Source: an uncultured Clostridium sp.
GTDB taxonomy: Bacteria; Bacillota_A; Clostridia; Lachnospirales; Lachnospiraceae
DNA length: 8,172 nucleotides
NCBI GenBank assembly: GCA_947174825.1
Contig: CAMWKN010000046.1
Coordinates: 1 to 8,172 of the forward strand
Reading direction: 5' to 3'
The position numbers were made by a program, and so were the translations under genes. Positions 236 through 7,562 of this stretch are shown in pieces. The first letter of the stretch is position 1. Each line of letters opens with the position of its first letter. The notes under the pieces are model-generated. The model was not told the DNA's origin. It did no database searches and saw only the letters and a program-made list of their open reading frames with translations.

Positions 236-1066
236 CTAGATTGTGTGATTTTGCTTCTGTGCAATTAAAGTATTCATGCAATGTTTATGTGATATTCCAC
301 TGCTATCGCAGTCAAATACATCTTCTCTGCAGGTATGAAAGAACCAGTCATGATAATACCCAAACAGTTCTCCGGAGTGCCAAGGATATTTTTCCTCCTC
401 ATCGGATGCATCTGGAGCACGTGATATAAAAGGCTTTTTGACAAATACATTCAAGGCATTAATACCATTTTCTGTGGTATGTTCTTTTAAGTGATCACAC
501 AGGGCATTTCTTTCCGATGTTGGGATAAAATGCATTGCGCCACTGCAGAAGATAATATCATAGTCACTATCCAGTCGGTAATCCAACATATTCGCCTGGA
601 AAAAATTCACTTCGGTCTGATTGTGTCTGGCAAGGAGTTTTGCCTTTTCAATGCCACGGCTGGAAAGGTCAAATGCTGTCACGACATAACCGCATTTTGC
701 AAAGAAAACCGCATCTTTTCCCTCGCCGCATCCGATATCCAGTACCCGGTATGGTTTGGTAGGAGGGAGGATTTTCATAATATCATAGCAGATAGAATTT
801 GGCATCAGTCCCCAATAATATTCCTCATCATGATAGCGTTTGTCGTAGTCAGTTACGACACTGCTGTAGCCAAGCAACGCATCGATGGTAGTGTGGAGGG
901 CAGCCGCCAGTTTTGGCAGAGTGAGCACATCGGGATATGCTGCATTATTTTCCCATTTGGAAATTGCCTGGAAAGACAGATTAAGCATTCCAGCAAGCTG
1001 ATTCTGGGTTAGTCCTAATTCTTTGCGTTTTTTGCTAATGACTTCTCCAATTTTCAATTGATCCAT
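236..1066 (-). CDS. XRE-family HTH domain fused to a class I SAM-dependent methyltransferase
   Basis: A 276-residue cytoplasmic protein. Residues about 6-65 are a Cro/CI-type helix-turn-helix (motif LGLTQNQLAGMLNLSFQAIS followed by KWENNAAYPDVLTL). Residues about 105-210 are a Rossmann-type methyltransferase: motif I VLDIGCGEG at 108-116, the acidic end of strand 2 in AFD at 131-133, and motif IV-like DIIFCSGAMHFI at 170-181. The sequence resembles TehB/UbiE-type small-molecule methyltransferases. This domain pairing is common in Clostridia, where the protein is annotated only generically, so the methyl acceptor and the DNA target are unknown. The start is supported by AAAGGAG (minus strand, about 1083-1077) 10 bases before ATG. 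It is transcribed divergently from the HTH-amylase gene. Domain calls are secure; function is inferred. Confidence 0.9.
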   Translation of the reverse strand: MDQLKIGEVISKKRKELGLTQNQLAGMLNLSFQAISKWENNAAYPDVLTLPKLAAALHTTIDALLGYSSVVTDYDKRYHDEEYYWGLMPNSICYDIMKILPPTKPYRVLDIGCGEGKDAVFFAKCGYVVTAFDLSSRGIEKAKLLARHNQTEVNFFQANMLDYRLDSDYDIIFCSGAMHFIPTSERNALCDHLKEHTTENGINALNVFVKKPFISRAPDASDEEEKYPWHSGELFGYYHDWFFHTCREDVFDCDSSGISHKHCMNTLIAQKQNHTI

Positions 1067-1279: not shown

Positions 1280-1308
1280 TTGACAATATAGGATATATCC
1301 TATATAAT
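1280..1308 (+). promoter_or_regulatory. Perfect-consensus sigma-A promoter with a palindromic operator in its spacer
   Basis: TTGACA (1280-1285) and TATAAT (1303-1308) are exact consensus hexamers with the optimal 17-bp spacer. The spacer and the first half of the -10 box form a perfect 20-bp palindrome, ATATAGGATATATCCTATAT (1286-1305). A dimeric repressor there would block RNA polymerase directly. XRE antitoxins of the HigA type usually repress their own promoters through such palindromes, and the next gene begins with that kind of domain, so autoregulation is the natural reading. The binding partner is inferred. Confidence 0.85.
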
Positions 1309-1322
1309 TTGAAGAAGCTATT

Positions 1323-1406
1323 ATGAGGAACAATAGTAAGGTTGCAAAATCATTGGCTTATTTTGATACCAGAAAGGATGGAAAGGGTGAAAAAAGTGGC
1401 TCATAA
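1323..1406 (+). CDS. 27-codon mini-ORF overlapping the start of the HTH-amylase gene
   Basis: An ATG at 1323, 15 bases after the -10 box, opens a 27-residue basic peptide (begins MRNNSKVAKSLAYF, ends GKGEKSGS) with stop TAA at 1404-1406. Only a weak GAAGAAG lies upstream, and the transcript leader would be very short. It occupies the place where a HigB/RelE-type toxin would sit in a toxin-first operon, and it overlaps the probable GTG starts of the following antitoxin-like frame in another frame. It could therefore be a translational-coupling leader or the fused remains of a deleted toxin gene. I do not recognise it as a known family, and translation is unproven. Confidence 0.35.
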   Translation: MRNNSKVAKSLAYFDTRKDGKGEKSGS

Positions 1407-2979
1407 GTACAAGACAGATATTGCTGCCGATTTAGCAGAAAATTTGACTAGATCAAGGGAGATGCTTGGTCTTACGCAGAAACAGCTATCGGATCTGACA
1501 GGGATTTACCAGTCAGATATCAGTAAGATAGAGCGGGGCATTGCCAATCCCTCTGTATCCACCCTAAAACGGCTGGCAGACGGCATGGGATTAAAATTAT
1601 GGATTGATTTTGTTGCAATAACAGATGCAACAGGTGTTGCATCTGTGGAAAGTATGGAGGAAGAATTCATGTGGGCATATGAAAGTGTATTTTATCAGAT
1701 TTATCCCCTGGGATTTTGTGGGGCACCTTTTGAAAATGATGGAAAGCAGGAGTCTCGTATCTTGAAGGTATTGGATTGGATTCCGCACATTCAGAAATTG
1801 GGAGCGAATGCAATTTATTTTTCGCCAATTTTCGAGTCGGACACCCATGGATATAATACCAGGGATTACCAGAAAATTGATTGCAGATTAGGGACGAATG
1901 AGGATTTTGCCAAAGTGTGTGAGGAGCTGCACCAGGCAGATATACGAGTGGTGTTGGATGGTGTGTTCAATCATGTGGGCAGAGGATTCTGGGCATTTGA
2001 GGATGTTTTGCAAAACCGGGAAAATTCCAGATACCGGGATTGGTTCCATATTGATTTTAATGGCAATTCCCACTATAATGATGGTCTGTGGTATGAAGGC
2101 TGGGAGGGCAACTTTGATCTGGTTAAGCTGAATCTTCAGAATGAGGAAGTGATCCAGCATATTTTTGCCGCAGTAAAATATTGGGTGGAGACTTTTGATA
2201 TTGACGGGCTGCGTCTGGATGTGGCATATTGTCTGGACAGGGAGTTTTTGAAACGCCTGCGGCAGTTTACGGACACTTTGAAGGAGGACTTCTTTCTGGT
2301 GGGAGAGACACTGCATGGGGATTATAAGCAATGGGCAAATGATGAGATGTGCCATTCTGTTACGAATTATGAATGTTATCATGGGATGCACTCCAGCTTT
2401 AACAGCATGAATATGTTTGAAATCTGCCACTCCCTGTTAAGGCAGTATGGGCCGGAGGAATGGACTTTATATAAAGGAATGCATTTGTTAAACTTCGTGG
2501 ATAACCACGATGTGAGCCGTGTTGCCAGTGTTCTGAAGAATGAAAAGCATCTGCCGTTAATTTATGCGCTGTGCTTTGGAATGCCGGGGATTCCTTGTGT
2601 TTACTATGGAAGTGAATGGGGTACTAAGGCAGATAAGAGTGAAGGAGATCCGGCACTTCGTGTGAGTTTTGACGAACCGGAGACCAGTGAATTGACAGAG
2701 TGGATTGCCAAATTGGCAGAGGTAAAGAAAAACAGTAAGGCTTTGAATTACGGTGGTTTTCGTTCGGTAGTATTGACGAATCAGCAGTGTATTTTTGAGC
2801 GCAAATGCGAAGGAGAGAGGATACTGGTGGCGATTAACGCATCCGGAGATCCATATACAGCCCACTTTGATGCAGGCTGCGGCATGGCAGAGGATCTGCT
2901 GACAGGGAAAGATCATGATTTCGGTGGCGGCAGTGAATTACCACCTTATTCTGCTGCCTATTGGAAGATGGAGAGATAG
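1387..2979 (+). CDS. HigA-like XRE domain joined in frame to a GH13 alpha-amylase-family glycoside hydrolase
   Basis: One uninterrupted frame of 530 residues (GTG 1387 start). Residues about 16-75 are an XRE helix-turn-helix of the HigA antitoxin type (MLGLTQKQLSDLTGIYQSDI, then SKIERGIANPSVSTLKRLAD). From residue 95 a complete GH13 enzyme follows: YQIYPLGF near its start, region I DGVFNH (191-196), region II GLRLD with nucleophile Asp278, region III GE with acid/base Glu307, region IV VDNHD with Asp375, and a C-terminal beta domain. There is no signal peptide, so it should hydrolyse or transfer alpha-glucans or maltodextrins in the cytoplasm; the exact specificity cannot be told. The start is uncertain: GTG 1387 (AGAAAGGA 8 bases upstream), GTG 1396 (AAAGGG upstream), ATG 1378 and TTG 1342 share the frame. 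An internal ATG at 1669 with a strong ribosome site would give the 436-residue enzyme alone, which is the usual size for such an amylase. The joint looks like a lost antitoxin stop codon rather than an ancient fusion. Confidence 0.85.
   Translation: MKKVAHKYKTDIAADLAENLTRSREMLGLTQKQLSDLTGIYQSDISKIERGIANPSVSTLKRLADGMGLKLWIDFVAITDATGVASVESMEEEFMWAYESVFYQIYPLGFCGAPFENDGKQESRILKVLDWIPHIQKLGANAIYFSPIFESDTHGYNTRDYQKIDCRLGTNEDFAKVCEELHQADIRVVLDGVFNHVGRGFWAFEDVLQNRENSRYRDWFHIDFNGNSHYNDGLWYEGWEGNFDLVKLNLQNEEVIQHIFAAVKYWVETFDIDGLRLDVAYCLDREFLKRLRQFTDTLKEDFFLVGETLHGDYKQWANDEMCHSVTNYECYHGMHSSFNSMNMFEICHSLLRQYGPEEWTLYKGMHLLNFVDNHDVSRVASVLKNEKHLPLIYALCFGMPGIPCVYYGSEWGTKADKSEGDPALRVSFDEPETSELTEWIAKLAEVKKNSKALNYGGFRSVVLTNQQCIFERKCEGERILVAINASGDPYTAHFDAGCGMAEDLLTGKDHDFGGGSELPPYSAAYWKMER
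1621..1646. repeat. Perfect inverted repeat at the HTH/amylase junction
   Basis: ACAGATGCAACA (1621-1632) and its exact complement TGTTGCATCTGT (1635-1646) are separated only by GG. There is no T tract, so it is not an intrinsic terminator. In DNA it has the form of a dimer operator; in RNA it would be a tight hairpin ending 9 bases before the amylase ribosome site. It lies in the linker codons (reads TDATGVASV). It could be a relic of the amylase gene's former upstream control region. Confidence 0.75.
1656..1671 (+). promoter_or_regulatory. Internal ribosome binding site and ATG for free-standing amylase
   Basis: GGAGG (1656-1660) stands 8 bases before ATG 1669-1671, in frame with the upstream HTH. 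The protein from here begins MWAYESVFYQIYPLGF, which is where a normal GH13 domain begins. This is a better initiation site than any of the candidate starts for the upstream HTH part, so at least part of the amylase is probably made independently. Confidence 0.75.
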
Positions 2980-4484: not shown

Positions 4485-4541
4485 ATGAATACAGCAGATC
4501 AGAATAACGGAGGAAAATGGGATGAGAGAACGATTACATAA
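4485..4541 (+). CDS. 18-codon leader ORF overlapping the DUF6518-like gene
   Basis: ATG 4485 preceded by GGGGTG (4474-4479) opens MNTADQNNGGKWDERTIT and stops at TAA 4539-4541. It runs over the ribosome site and first codons of the following gene in another frame. It may couple translation from the upstream Gx gene to the next gene, or be chance. No homology is recognised. Confidence 0.25.
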   Translation: MNTADQNNGGKWDERTIT

Positions 4542-5160
4542 GATCAGAATGTCAGAAAAGGAGCTGTCTTTTCAAAAGAAAATGGCAATTACAGCTGCGA
4601 TTCTGCTAGGTGGATGCCTGCTGGGTATCATGCAGAAATGGCTGGATGGAGGGGCGTATAATGCCTTTCCTATATGGCTGCAGAACTTAGATCCAGCTAA
4701 TTATTTTGGCAGATTGTCTTTCTGGATCCTGATGTCGGTTGTAATCTCCATCTATGCGGAAAATCCTTTTCGGGCATCTGTGAATACCTTTTCATTTTTG
4801 ATTAGTATGGTGGCAGGGTATTATGTTTATTGTAAATTTGTGGCAGGATTTTTGCCGGTATCTTATATGATGTTCTGGGTTCTGGCTGCATTTGCTGCGA
4901 TTCCGGCTGCCTTTGTCTGCTGGTATGCCAGAGGGGAGGGAGTGGCAGCGATCTGCATATCGGCTGTTATATTAGGCGTGTTATTTTCACAGGCGATTCT
5001 GGTAACACAGAGAGTTCATGTGACACATTTGCTGGATCTTCTAACTTGGGGAATAGGGGTGGTAATTCTACATCGGAAACCGAAGGAATATGTGGTAACG
5101 TTTTTGTTGTCTTTAGTGGTGGCTGTGGTTTATCAGTTGATTTTTCCTTATTTTGGATAG
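4522..5160 (+). CDS. Polytopic membrane protein, DUF6518-like
   Basis: A 212-residue protein with about seven hydrophobic spans, near 21-38, 66-79, 88-108, 115-135, 140-161, 168-183 and 190-208, after a short basic N-terminus. The pattern GIMQKWLD, then ISIYAENPFRASVNTFSFLISMVAGYYVY and SYMMFWV...CWYARG, matches my recollection of DUF6518, a Firmicutes membrane family without known function. There are no catalytic motifs. GGAGG (4509-4513) is 8 bases before ATG. It follows the Gx gene by 64 bases and is probably in the same transcript, which ends at the terminator just downstream. Confidence 0.8.
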   Translation: MRERLHKIRMSEKELSFQKKMAITAAILLGGCLLGIMQKWLDGGAYNAFPIWLQNLDPANYFGRLSFWILMSVVISIYAENPFRASVNTFSFLISMVAGYYVYCKFVAGFLPVSYMMFWVLAAFAAIPAAFVCWYARGEGVAAICISAVILGVLFSQAILVTQRVHVTHLLDLLTWGIGVVILHRKPKEYVVTFLLSLVVAVVYQLIFPYFG

Positions 5161-5461: not shown

Positions 5462-5977
5462 ATGGATATGGATGAAATCTATCAGGAATATGCGGAATTG
5501 ATCTATCATTATCTTCTGGGTTTGTGCCATAATCCCTCTCTTGCTGAGGATATTGTGCAGACGACTTTTCTAAAAGCCATTGAATCCATTGATTCCTTTC
5601 GGCATCAGTCAAAAATCTCCACCTGGCTGTTTCAGATTGCGAAACATGAATATATGGATGTTATGCGGCGGAAGGAGAATCAGAATATATCCATGGAGGA
5701 ATTTCAGCAGGATTCTTCGCCGGGGGAAATGAATTTTGCAAAGAATGGTCCCTCCATACTGGAACATTTGATTGAGAAGGAGCAGAAAGAGAGGGTTTTG
5801 TGGCATCTACACCAATTGCCGGAACCGTACAAAGAGGTCTTTTTGCTGCATATATATGGGGAGTGTTCCTACCGGGAGATTGCCGAGGTGTTTGGAAGGA
5901 CGGAGGTATGGGCGAGAGTGACCTGTTTTCGGGCAAAGGAAAAATTGGTCCAGTGCTTAAAGCAGGAGAATGATTAA
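5462..5977 (+). CDS. ECF-type RNA polymerase sigma-70 factor
   Basis: A 171-residue sigma factor with only regions 2 and 4. Region 2 spans about 5-70: AEDIVQTTFLKAIESIDSF (28-46) and the -10 recognition segment KISTWLFQIAKHEYMDVMRR (51-70). Region 4 spans about 113-163, with LPEPYKEVFLLHIYGECSYREIAEVFGRT containing the helix-turn-helix that reads the -35 element. The ATG at 5462, with AAGGGGGA (5446-5452) upstream, is preferred over the in-frame ATG at 5417, which has no ribosome site and adds non-family residues. The next gene encodes its anti-sigma factor, 77 bases downstream, so the pair probably forms an envelope-signal response module. The inducing signal cannot be read. Confidence 0.95.
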   Translation: MDMDEIYQEYAELIYHYLLGLCHNPSLAEDIVQTTFLKAIESIDSFRHQSKISTWLFQIAKHEYMDVMRRKENQNISMEEFQQDSSPGEMNFAKNGPSILEHLIEKEQKERVLWHLHQLPEPYKEVFLLHIYGECSYREIAEVFGRTEVWARVTCFRAKEKLVQCLKQEND

Positions 5978-6054
5978 AACGACGGCAGCATCCGTTTGGT
6001 GTTTTCGTTGTGTATCGTTTGTATTATGTAAGAATTACGAGGAGAGTGATGGAA

Positions 6055-7449
6055 ATGAAGTGTAATGTAGTCAGAGATTTATTACCTCTATATCTGGATC
6101 AGTTATGTGAGGAGGAAACCAGTGAAGAGATCAAAGATCATTTGGAGGGCTGTGAAGAGTGCAGACAGAGATGGGAAGAGATGGGAAGCCCGGTGGAGAG
6201 CGTGATCGGTCAGTTGGAAAAGGAAACGGTCTCCATTGAACCGATGAAAAAATATCGAAAGAAAATTAAAAGAAAAAATAGTATGCTGGTGTTGACTATT
6301 CTGTTGTCGGTGGTTGTGATTGGGCTACTGTCTTATTTGAGTTATGGGCAGATCCGACATATCGGACACAGTTTTGAAACCATTTCTCAGTATATCCGTT
6401 TTACCCATATTGGAAAGGAATTTGCAAAGGGGAATCTGGAGCCATTATTATCCAGTCTTGCTATTGTAGGAGATGATTCAGAGCATGCGTATTATGCGAA
6501 ACAGGCTTATAGAGATGATGAAGATGATGAAGATGCCTCTATTAGGGATGCCTATATTAAGGATGCCAAGGAATATATCCGAAAGCTTTATCCAGATTAT
6601 TTTCAAGGAAAGCCTTTGAAGTTGCGAAAGGTGATCGTGGAATATCATACGGAGCAGGTGTATATGAACAAAAATCTGTCGGTGATACTGATTTATGAGA
6701 TTGATGGTATAGAATATTGTATCCAATTAGAACGGAGGGCGGGAGAAAAATATTATGTGACCAGAGATGAATTTGTGGAATCGGCAGAGCCAGTTACGTA
6801 TACTGCAGAGAATGAGGATGATGAAACAGAAGATACAGATGGCGAAACAGAGGATACAGATGGTGAAACAGAGGATACAGATAGCGAAATAGGGGATACA
6901 GATGGCGAAACAGGGGAAAATGTTGTTGAAGAGGAAATGACAGATAGCGGGACAAAATCATCGTTTTTGGAGTGCCGGGAGTCTTTGTTCCGAAGTCTGC
7001 CGCCCTTTGATGATAGCTACCTTTTTGTGGCAAAAAAAATCATCCGTGGAAGCTATAAGATGCGGAGGGATTCAGGGGATACTTTACCCCCTAATATGTT
7101 TATGACTTCCATGTTGTATATAACGGAAGAATGTCTAAAGGATCATGAATTTTGGATTGAATATCAGGAAATTATGTTGCGGCATGCAGAGCAGATTATT
7201 CAGCAGAATTACTGGATGCAGGATATAGATTACCAGATCCTGTCCTATGACAAGGAAAAGCATATGTTTCGTTATCGGATAAACCTTTTCATGGTTAATG
7301 TGGAGACGGAGAAAGAGTGTGTACTGTCGGTGGAATGCTACAGGCATGTATCGGAGATGATAGTGATTCCGGGAACAGAAAAACTCATAGGGGAGAATAT
7401 AGCAGAAGAGGCAAAGAGGGCAATGTTGAATCTATGGAAGGTTGACTAG
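6055..7449 (+). CDS. Zinc-finger (ZAS) transmembrane anti-sigma factor with a large extracytoplasmic domain
   Basis: A 464-residue protein. Residues 1-36 are a zinc-binding anti-sigma domain: Cys3, then His29-x3-Cys33-x2-Cys36. A basic stretch (65-75, KKYRKKIKRKN) precedes one membrane helix at about 76-97, so the remaining 365 residues should lie outside the membrane. The outer part has two globular-looking segments (about 100-250 and 295-464) joined by an acidic repeat linker at 256-290. It should hold the upstream sigma factor at the membrane and release it on a signal, by proteolysis or ligand binding. GAGGAG (6039-6044) lies 10 bases before ATG 6055 and 4 before ATG 6049; either start is possible, and the in-frame GTG at 6010 is unlikely. 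It is unusually long for this family, and the outer domains match nothing I recognise. Confidence 0.88.
   Translation: MKCNVVRDLLPLYLDQLCEEETSEEIKDHLEGCEECRQRWEEMGSPVESVIGQLEKETVSIEPMKKYRKKIKRKNSMLVLTILLSVVVIGLLSYLSYGQIRHIGHSFETISQYIRFTHIGKEFAKGNLEPLLSSLAIVGDDSEHAYYAKQAYRDDEDDEDASIRDAYIKDAKEYIRKLYPDYFQGKPLKLRKVIVEYHTEQVYMNKNLSVILIYEIDGIEYCIQLERRAGEKYYVTRDEFVESAEPVTYTAENEDDETEDTDGETEDTDGETEDTDSEIGDTDGETGENVVEEEMTDSGTKSSFLECRESLFRSLPPFDDSYLFVAKKIIRGSYKMRRDSGDTLPPNMFMTSMLYITEECLKDHEFWIEYQEIMLRHAEQIIQQNYWMQDIDYQILSYDKEKHMFRYRINLFMVNVETEKECVLSVECYRHVSEMIVIPGTEKLIGENIAEEAKRAMLNLWKVD
6820..6924 (+). repeat. 21-bp tandem repeat encoding an acidic seven-residue linker
   Basis: Five consecutive 21-bp units start at 6820, 6841, 6862, 6883 and 6904; units two and three differ by one base and the last is degenerate. 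They encode DETEDTD, GETEDTD, GETEDTD, SEIGDTD and GETGENV. The repeat keeps frame, so copy-number change would alter only linker length between the two extracytoplasmic segments of the anti-sigma factor. Confidence 0.95.
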
Positions 7450-7499: not shown

Positions 7500-7528
7500 A
7501 GCGCAAGTCATGTGGCTTGCGCTTTTTT
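7500..7528 (+). terminator. Intrinsic terminator of the sigma/anti-sigma operon
   Basis: AGCGCAAG (7500-7507) pairs with CTTGCGCT (7516-7523) over an 8-nt loop, followed directly by a run of T to 7528. It lies 50 bases after the anti-sigma stop. Confidence 0.9.
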
Positions 7529-7562
7529 ATCGAATAGGAGATTCCTCCTATTCGATAAAAAA
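7523..7562. repeat. Perfect 18-bp hairpin immediately after the terminator
   Basis: TTTTTTATCGAATAGGAG (7523-7540) and CTCCTATTCGATAAAAAA (7545-7562) are exact complements around the loop ATTC. The left arm shares the T tract of the preceding terminator. It is the left edge of the GC-rich element that follows. Confidence 0.9.

What the first reader, a model, noticed from the sequence alone, without database searches (positions are those of the whole stretch)
1387..2979. HigA-like XRE repressor fused in frame to an intact GH13 amylase, with an internal start
No stop codon separates an antitoxin-type DNA-binding domain from a full amylase with all four conserved regions. Because the enzyme also has its own GGAGG-ATG, the locus could make two products: an enzyme tethered to an autorepressor and a free enzyme. 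This would be an unusual arrangement in which substrate binding or enzyme level could feed back on transcription, or alternatively a recent accident in which an orphan antitoxin lost its stop.
Basis: partly seen in the sequence, partly recalled or inferred. Interest (0 to 1): 0.72.

Follow-up and report, generated by a model that had tools for sequence, protein, structure and literature searches.

The report
Starch enzyme fused to antitoxin repressor
A gut-type bacterium has welded the DNA-binding half of a toxin-antitoxin repressor, together with that repressor's own promoter and binding site, onto a starch-degrading enzyme with intact active-site motifs, so the enzyme probably controls its own gene.

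Summary
The fusion is real. One uninterrupted frame (start 1378, 1387 or 1396; stop 2979) encodes an XRE helix-turn-helix (HTH), a flexible linker and a complete GH13 enzyme with all catalytic motifs. Two other distinct genes (P0002, 89%; L001, 86%) carry the same fusion with different in-frame linkers.

"HigA-like" is only partly right. The HTH's nearest kin are the C-terminal HTH of DUF2442-XRE proteins encoded beside DUF4160; DUF4160/DUF2442 pairs are the dhiTA toxin-antitoxin family. The finding missed the strongest clue: a 12-of-12 consensus promoter with a 20-bp palindrome (1280-1308), identical in front of L001 and exact or near-exact in front of DUF4160-DUF2442-XRE operons. It is absent upstream of the 78 unfused relatives that could be checked.

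So a promoter-operator-repressor cassette of a toxin-antitoxin operon, without toxin or DUF2442, drives and tags a metabolic enzyme. The enzyme's own ribosome-binding site survives inside the frame, so a free enzyme is a likely second product. Most likely mechanism: negative autoregulation by the fused enzyme. Binding, repression and both products are inferred; sugar sensing is possible but unsupported. The fusion is rare (0 of 79 ortholog-bearing genomes in a 397-genome family sample). Whether it arose once or twice is open.

The parts
1280..1308 (+). Promoter TTGACA-17-TATAAT, the same 29 bases as in front of the fused gene of L001 and, exact or with up to 3 mismatches, in front of DUF4160-DUF2442-XRE and Gp49-XRE operons
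   Evidence: 12 of 12 consensus positions; L001 identical; 9 distinct sites in 9 of 397 family genomes, reversed control 0
1286..1305 (.). Perfect 20-bp palindrome ATATAGGATATATCCTATAT, presumed operator of the HTH
   Evidence: 1 match in the window, 0 of 200 shuffles; position inside the promoter; binding not tested
1309..1395 (+). Leader of unknown origin between promoter and HTH; holds the candidate starts 1342, 1378 and 1387
   Evidence: No convincing match to DUF4160/DUF2442 operon DNA; start signals
1396..1614 (+). XRE helix-turn-helix domain (translation may start at 1378, 1387 or 1396)
   Evidence: Pfam HTH_3; folded in the AlphaFold2 model; keeps 37 of 37 positions conserved in 119 relatives
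1615..1668 (+). Linker of 18 codons, predicted disordered
   Evidence: pLDDT under 50 for P0001 residues 74-93; 9 and 10 codons in P0002 and L001
1656..1660 (+). Internal Shine-Dalgarno GGAGG, the counterpart of the leader of the unfused gene
   Evidence: Upstream alignments; duplex energy
1669..2979 (+). GH13 enzyme (neopullulanase/cyclomaltodextrinase-like, 436 aa) with its own ATG

Best explanation
A promoter-operator-repressor cassette from a DUF4160/DUF2442-XRE toxin-antitoxin operon has been captured by a cytoplasmic-type GH13 enzyme, making a self-regulating HTH-enzyme fusion. Shown by sequence: same promoter and palindrome, same HTH, toxin and DUF2442 domain missing, HTH frame running into a complete GH13 gene, the enzyme gene's own ribosome-binding site kept inside. 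Inferred: fused protein binds the palindrome between -35 and -10 and blocks its own promoter, so enzyme amount limits transcription; free enzyme from ATG 1669 on the same mRNA degrades maltodextrin- or cyclodextrin-type sugars without binding DNA.
For: Same fusion in three distinct genes, one of them also seen as an identical 108-aa fragment on another contig (P0122). Operator/promoter identical in L001 and shared with antitoxin operons; absent upstream of the 78 other loci that have upstream DNA. Nearest HTH relatives are DUF2442-XRE proteins. The L001 start region matches the DUF2442 gene start in 3 of 8 donor operons at 0 of 200 shuffles. HTH keeps 37/37 (window, P0002) and 35/37 (L001) conserved positions. 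HTH and GH13 are both 92% identical between window and P0002. Codon-position differences window/L001: HTH 18/7/36 of 65, GH13 47/16/194 of 436. Internal Shine-Dalgarno kept. DUF4160/DUF2442 operons are autorepressed in Dickeya (PMC8198452, passages).
Against: No binding, expression or enzyme data. Upstream start signals in the window are weaker than the internal one, so fused protein may be scarce. The window's leader is unexplained. P0002 has protein only, so its operator is unknown. L001's MAG looks mixed: one of its contigs is 99.8% identical over 6.3 kb to another genome. Rare (0 of 79 orthologs), so it could be young. In the Dickeya system the antitoxin is called DUF2442 only; whether it has an HTH was not checked.
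Confidence: 0.62

Rival explanations
1. Vestigial capture. The enzyme gained a strong toxin-antitoxin promoter; the in-frame HTH is a by-product and only free enzyme from ATG 1669 matters.
For: The internal start signal is stronger than any upstream one in the window; the fusion is rare.
Against: HTH conserved at 37 of 37 key positions in window and P0002 and no faster-evolving than the enzyme between them; frame kept over three linker lengths; in L001 the outer start signal is as strong as the internal one (-11.6 against -11.9).
Confidence: 0.18
2. Sugar-sensing trigger enzyme. Substrate or product in the intact active site changes DNA binding, so the fusion is a maltodextrin-responsive repressor.
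For: Catalytic residues intact; [quoted passage not shown]
Against: The linker is predicted disordered, so no obvious path for a signal; the catalytically active BzdR-like chimera, unlike the inactive one, did not respond in vivo (PMC3602430, Concluding Remarks); no data here.
Confidence: 0.13
3. The fusion still works as an antitoxin against a DUF4160 toxin elsewhere in the cell.
For: The HTH comes from such operons.
Against: The DUF2442 domain is missing, and DUF2442 alone is listed as the antitoxin in two described systems (PMC8198452 and PMC12724237, passages); no DUF4160 gene is seen between promoter and fusion.
Confidence: 0.04
4. Assembly or sequencing error joined two genes.
For: The window belongs to no genome held here.
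Against: Three distinct fused sequences from different records; P0001 stands for 13 member sequences.
Confidence: 0.02

Closest known systems
DUF4160/DUF2442 (dhiTA) type II toxin-antitoxin operons, in their DUF2442-XRE form
   Same: Same promoter/palindrome, same HTH (HTH relatives listed are 60-78% identical over the matched part); dhiTA is autorepressed (PMC8198452, passages)
   Different: No DUF4160 toxin gene, no DUF2442 domain; HTH fused to a GH13 enzyme
BzdR (XRE HTH + shikimate-kinase-like domain) and the synthetic Q1 chimera
   Same: N-terminal XRE HTH, linker, C-terminal enzyme fold; Q1 kept enzyme activity (PMC3602430: abstract, Introduction, Concluding Remarks seen)
   Different: BzdR's enzyme domain has lost activity and senses benzoyl-CoA; here the enzyme is a GH13 hydrolase with intact motifs, and the HTH and operator come from a toxin-antitoxin operon
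BirA, PutA and other enzymes that repress genes (recalled, not looked up)
   Same: Enzyme and DNA-binding repressor in one polypeptide
   Different: Other folds and pathways; old, widespread fusions rather than a rare one
Unfused GH13 orthologs of Lachnospiraceae (P0004, L002, L003 and others)
   Same: Up to 91% identical enzyme; same type of Shine-Dalgarno and start as the internal start here
   Different: No HTH; in-frame stop within 48 codons upstream and no operator in all 78 loci that could be checked
HigBA (Gp49/XRE) operons
   Same: Same HTH superfamily; two such operons carry the palindrome with 2-3 mismatches (L138, L143)
   Different: No Gp49 toxin gene here; HTH sequence nearer to DUF2442-XRE proteins

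Membership tests
   No such ORF between promoter 1280-1308 and the HTH, nor in Pfam results of the eight window proteins scanned
   Best database relatives are DUF2442-XRE proteins; a solved HigA is a weak match (6af3, 2.4e-4)
DUF4160/DUF2442-XRE toxin-antitoxin system | XRE HTH of this family | tested here: met
   37 of 37 conserved positions
DUF4160/DUF2442-XRE toxin-antitoxin system | Family promoter/palindrome upstream | tested here: met
DUF4160/DUF2442-XRE toxin-antitoxin system | DUF4160 toxin gene and DUF2442 domain | tested here: not met
   Neither found in window or L001 fusion
GH13 neopullulanase/cyclomaltodextrinase-like enzymes | Conserved regions I-IV with the catalytic Asp, Glu, Asp | tested here: met
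   fold match to 6a0k, 1j0h and others
GH13 neopullulanase/cyclomaltodextrinase-like enzymes | Hydrolytic activity on cyclodextrin, pullulan or maltodextrin | not testable with these tools
   Needs an enzyme assay; NCBIfam models of named enzymes score below their cut-offs
Trigger enzyme / self-regulating enzyme | Enzyme and DNA-binding domain in one polypeptide with a matching operator | tested here: met
   Sequence only:
Trigger enzyme / self-regulating enzyme | Regulation responds to metabolic state | not testable with these tools
   Needs reporter or binding assays with and without sugar

The most novel reading that the evidence does not exclude
A natural 'missing link' in the birth of a sugar-responsive repressor: a toxin-antitoxin operon gave its promoter, operator and DNA-binding domain to a catabolic GH13 enzyme that keeps its catalytic residues, perhaps twice independently (window/P0002 and L001 lineages). 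Enzyme level or active-site occupancy now gates transcription, while an internal start supplies DNA-free enzyme from the same message.
Probability: 0.2. Interest if true: 0.82.

Novelty: new variant of a known kind. Interest (0 to 1): 0.62.

Why it matters
Regulators are thought to arise when enzymes recruit DNA-binding domains, yet for BzdR the stage with both parts intact had to be built synthetically (PMC3602430). This locus looks like a natural example of that stage. It also suggests another fate for toxin-antitoxin operons: a ready-made promoter-operator-repressor cassette that an ordinary gene can take over. One reporter assay and one gel shift would test it.

Tried and rejected
Remnants of toxin or DUF2442 in the window's leader (1309-1405): 16 local comparisons with 8 donor operons gave at best a score reached by 6 of 200 shuffles. 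Not convincing; the leader stays unexplained. For L001 the match to the DUF2442 gene start holds for 3 of 8 donors (L140, L145, L146; 0 of 200 shuffles) and not for the other 5 (alignments for 5 of the 8 printed).

One origin or two: in GH13 trees window and P0002 join (100/99) but L001 does not; 0% of 200 bootstrap trees make the three one clade, yet the AU test does not reject one clade (p 0.188). The HTH tree has too few columns to decide. Recurrence is therefore not claimed in the best explanation.

Synteny: none of the other nine window proteins or protein parts tested matched in L001. A neighbour (window 4522-5157) has relatives in 6 of 36 genomes, only 29-54% identical. No empty site could be compared.

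Second copy in L001's genome: its unfused copy (L006) lies on a contig 99.8% identical over 6.3 kb to another genome (L007), so that MAG is probably mixed and I draw nothing from the copy.

Odd matches checked: G455:C10 matched from residue 45, but its protein has no HTH. G002's match from residue 64 crosses three stops.

Wider regulon: one operator in the G001 assembly at up to 3 mismatches, one in the window, no exact 29-mer in viral contigs, no relative of the fusion there. Rfam: nothing at gathering score. PADLOC: generic HTH and GlgB-type matches only, no cut-offs given.

Discarded: alignment (short HTH proteins smeared over the enzyme). dS of the HTH was saturated and YN00 failed, so only codon-position counts are used.

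Literature: four searches gave 0 papers; listings only. This covers only the open PMC library held.

Full report
What is there. The window holds one open frame from TTG 1342 to the stop at 2979. From 1378 it encodes an XRE helix-turn-helix (HTH_3, residues 27-73) and a GH13 catalytic domain (Alpha-amylase, 131-420). Regions I-IV are intact and the catalytic residues are invariant in a 24-row alignment. An AlphaFold2 model (mean pLDDT 81.9) has a folded HTH (helices within residues 9-66, strand 72-75), a linker with pLDDT under 50 (74-93) and a mostly well-predicted GH13 part, with a weak stretch at 496-513. Best fold matches in the PDB are cyclic maltosyl-maltose hydrolase and neopullulanase. 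The start codon is uncertain: P0001 is this gene read from 1387, and the internal ATG 1669 has the strongest start signal.

It is not unique, but rare. A search of 5.8 billion proteins scored 7,997 relatives and listed 120; by their Pfam domains two of the 120 have the HTH, P0001 (this gene, 13 members) and P0002 (521 aa, 89%). A search with the HTH part among proteins of similar length found P0001, P0002 and P0121, a DUF2442-XRE-Uma2 protein. In one-per-species genomes 243 stretches encode a relative and the best 80 were kept. One of them, L001, is fused. One (L055) starts inside the gene and cannot be judged. The other 78 have an in-frame stop within 48 codons upstream of the enzyme's Met, and only L001 has a detectable homologous HTH in front. 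P0122 is an identical 108-aa fragment of the L001 protein on a contig of other length.

Frequency by genome. Genus of G001, the L001 genome: 28 genomes searched, 26 with a match at 1e-20, one fused. Two other genus samples: 23 of 26 and 36 of 39 genomes with a match at 1e-100, none fused. In these, the G002 match begins at residue 64 but crosses three stops, and a distant GH13 of G455 begins at residue 45 but has no HTH. Family sample: 79 of 397 genomes with an ortholog at 1e-220, none fused (earliest matched residue 72, crossing a stop). Some genomes occur in more than one sample, so the counts are not summed.

Where the HTH came from. The best database relatives of the HTH part, apart from the P0122 fragment, are mostly 153-162-aa proteins with DUF2442 in front of the same HTH (120 of 379 hits listed). 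In the loci read here they follow a DUF4160 gene. DUF4160/DUF2442 was described as the dhiTA type II toxin-antitoxin system, toxin gene first, its promoter about halved by the antitoxin and reduced 70-99% by the toxin-antitoxin complexes tested (PMC8198452; passages). A DUF4160/DUF2442 pair enhanced plasmid persistence in Thermus (PMC12724237; one passage), and a survey table lists the pair (PMC12654330; one passage).

The operator came along. A 12-of-12 promoter lies at 1280-1308; the same scan reports 9 promoter-like sites against 4.7 expected, of which only this is perfect. It contains a 20-bp perfect palindrome, 1286-1305, not reached in 200 shuffles. The same 29 bases precede the fused gene of L001. 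With up to 3 mismatches they occur 10 times in 9 of 397 family genomes, reversed control 0. Two of the ten are one palindromic site on both strands, so there are 9 sites. They are followed by the fusion (1); a DUF4160 gene and a DUF2442-XRE gene (5: L135, L139, L140, L141, L142); a DUF4160-like start and then a transposase-like ORF by eye (1: L137); a Gp49-type gene, in one case incomplete, and an XRE gene (2: L138, L143). Three further operons of the same genus (L145-L147) have the palindrome or a near copy. In the 78 unfused loci with upstream DNA, no core of this palindrome occurs in up to 600 nt (75 with the full 600 nt). In L001 the ribosome-binding site and first codons match the start of the DUF2442 gene (3 of 8 donors). 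So L001 has lost the toxin gene between promoter and antitoxin start, and the DUF2442 domain between that start and the HTH. The window's leader (1309-1405) shows no convincing match.

Constraint. Of 37 HTH positions conserved at 95% or more in 119 relatives, window and P0002 keep 37 and L001 35 (K to R, L to V). HTH and enzyme are both 92% identical between window and P0002. Window against L001 differs at 18/7/36 codon positions of 65 HTH codons and 47/16/194 of 436 enzyme codons. Linkers of 18, 9 and 10 codons keep the frame. If there were two captures, part of the window/L001 constraint would predate fusion; the window/P0002 comparison does not have that weakness.

Two products. Unfused relatives have leaders such as aggaggacataaca before ATG; L001 keeps aaggaggacataact and the window atggaggaagaattc, both inside the fused frame. 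Duplex energies: window internal -9.3; L001 outer -11.6 and internal -11.9; unfused L002 and L006 -10.2. P0002 has no DNA here; its residues ENKEEKI before the Met only permit such a signal.

Mechanism. Most likely the fused protein represses its own promoter through the palindrome, while free enzyme from the internal start does not bind DNA. The architecture is shown; binding, repression and both products are inferred. Sugar sensing is not supported: the linker looks flexible, and in the BzdR work the catalytically inactive chimera, unlike the active one, responded to inducers in vivo (PMC3602430; abstract, Introduction and Concluding Remarks seen).

Novelty and limits. Self-regulating enzymes are known (BzdR read about here; BirA and PutA recalled). 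My searches of the open library found no GH13 enzyme with an antitoxin HTH and operator (0 papers; 46, 62, 63: listings only), which is weak evidence of absence. I rate it a new variant of a known kind. Limits: no genome for the window, no DNA for P0002, a probably mixed MAG for L001, number of origins open.

Noticed in passing
window 236-1066 (-): A second XRE-enzyme protein in the same window: HTH_3 (residues 10-63) followed by a SAM methyltransferase domain (108-201). It reads away from the fusion.
   Followed up: no
window 6817-6917: 4.8 copies of a 21-bp tandem repeat inside the zf-HC2 anti-sigma-like gene 6010-7449, next to a sigma-70-type gene (5462-5977).
   Followed up: no
window 7523-7562: Perfect 18-bp inverted repeat with a 4-nt loop and flanking A/T runs, probably a terminator or a small repeat element.
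   Followed up: no
L006 and L007: The unfused GH13 contig in the MAG that holds L001 (SRR13428092_bin.28) is 99.8% identical over 6.3 kb to a contig of genome CAJSYQ01, so that MAG probably mixes two species.
   Followed up: partly
P0121 (protein, no locus): DUF2442-XRE fused to a Uma2-type nuclease domain: another enzyme joined to this antitoxin-type HTH.
   Followed up: partly
P0003 (protein, no locus): 559-aa GH13 with its first 123 or so residues duplicated head to tail; may be an assembly error.
   Followed up: no
L137: A DUF4160-type operon start with the palindrome, followed by a transposase-like ORF instead of the rest of the operon (named by eye).
   Followed up: no
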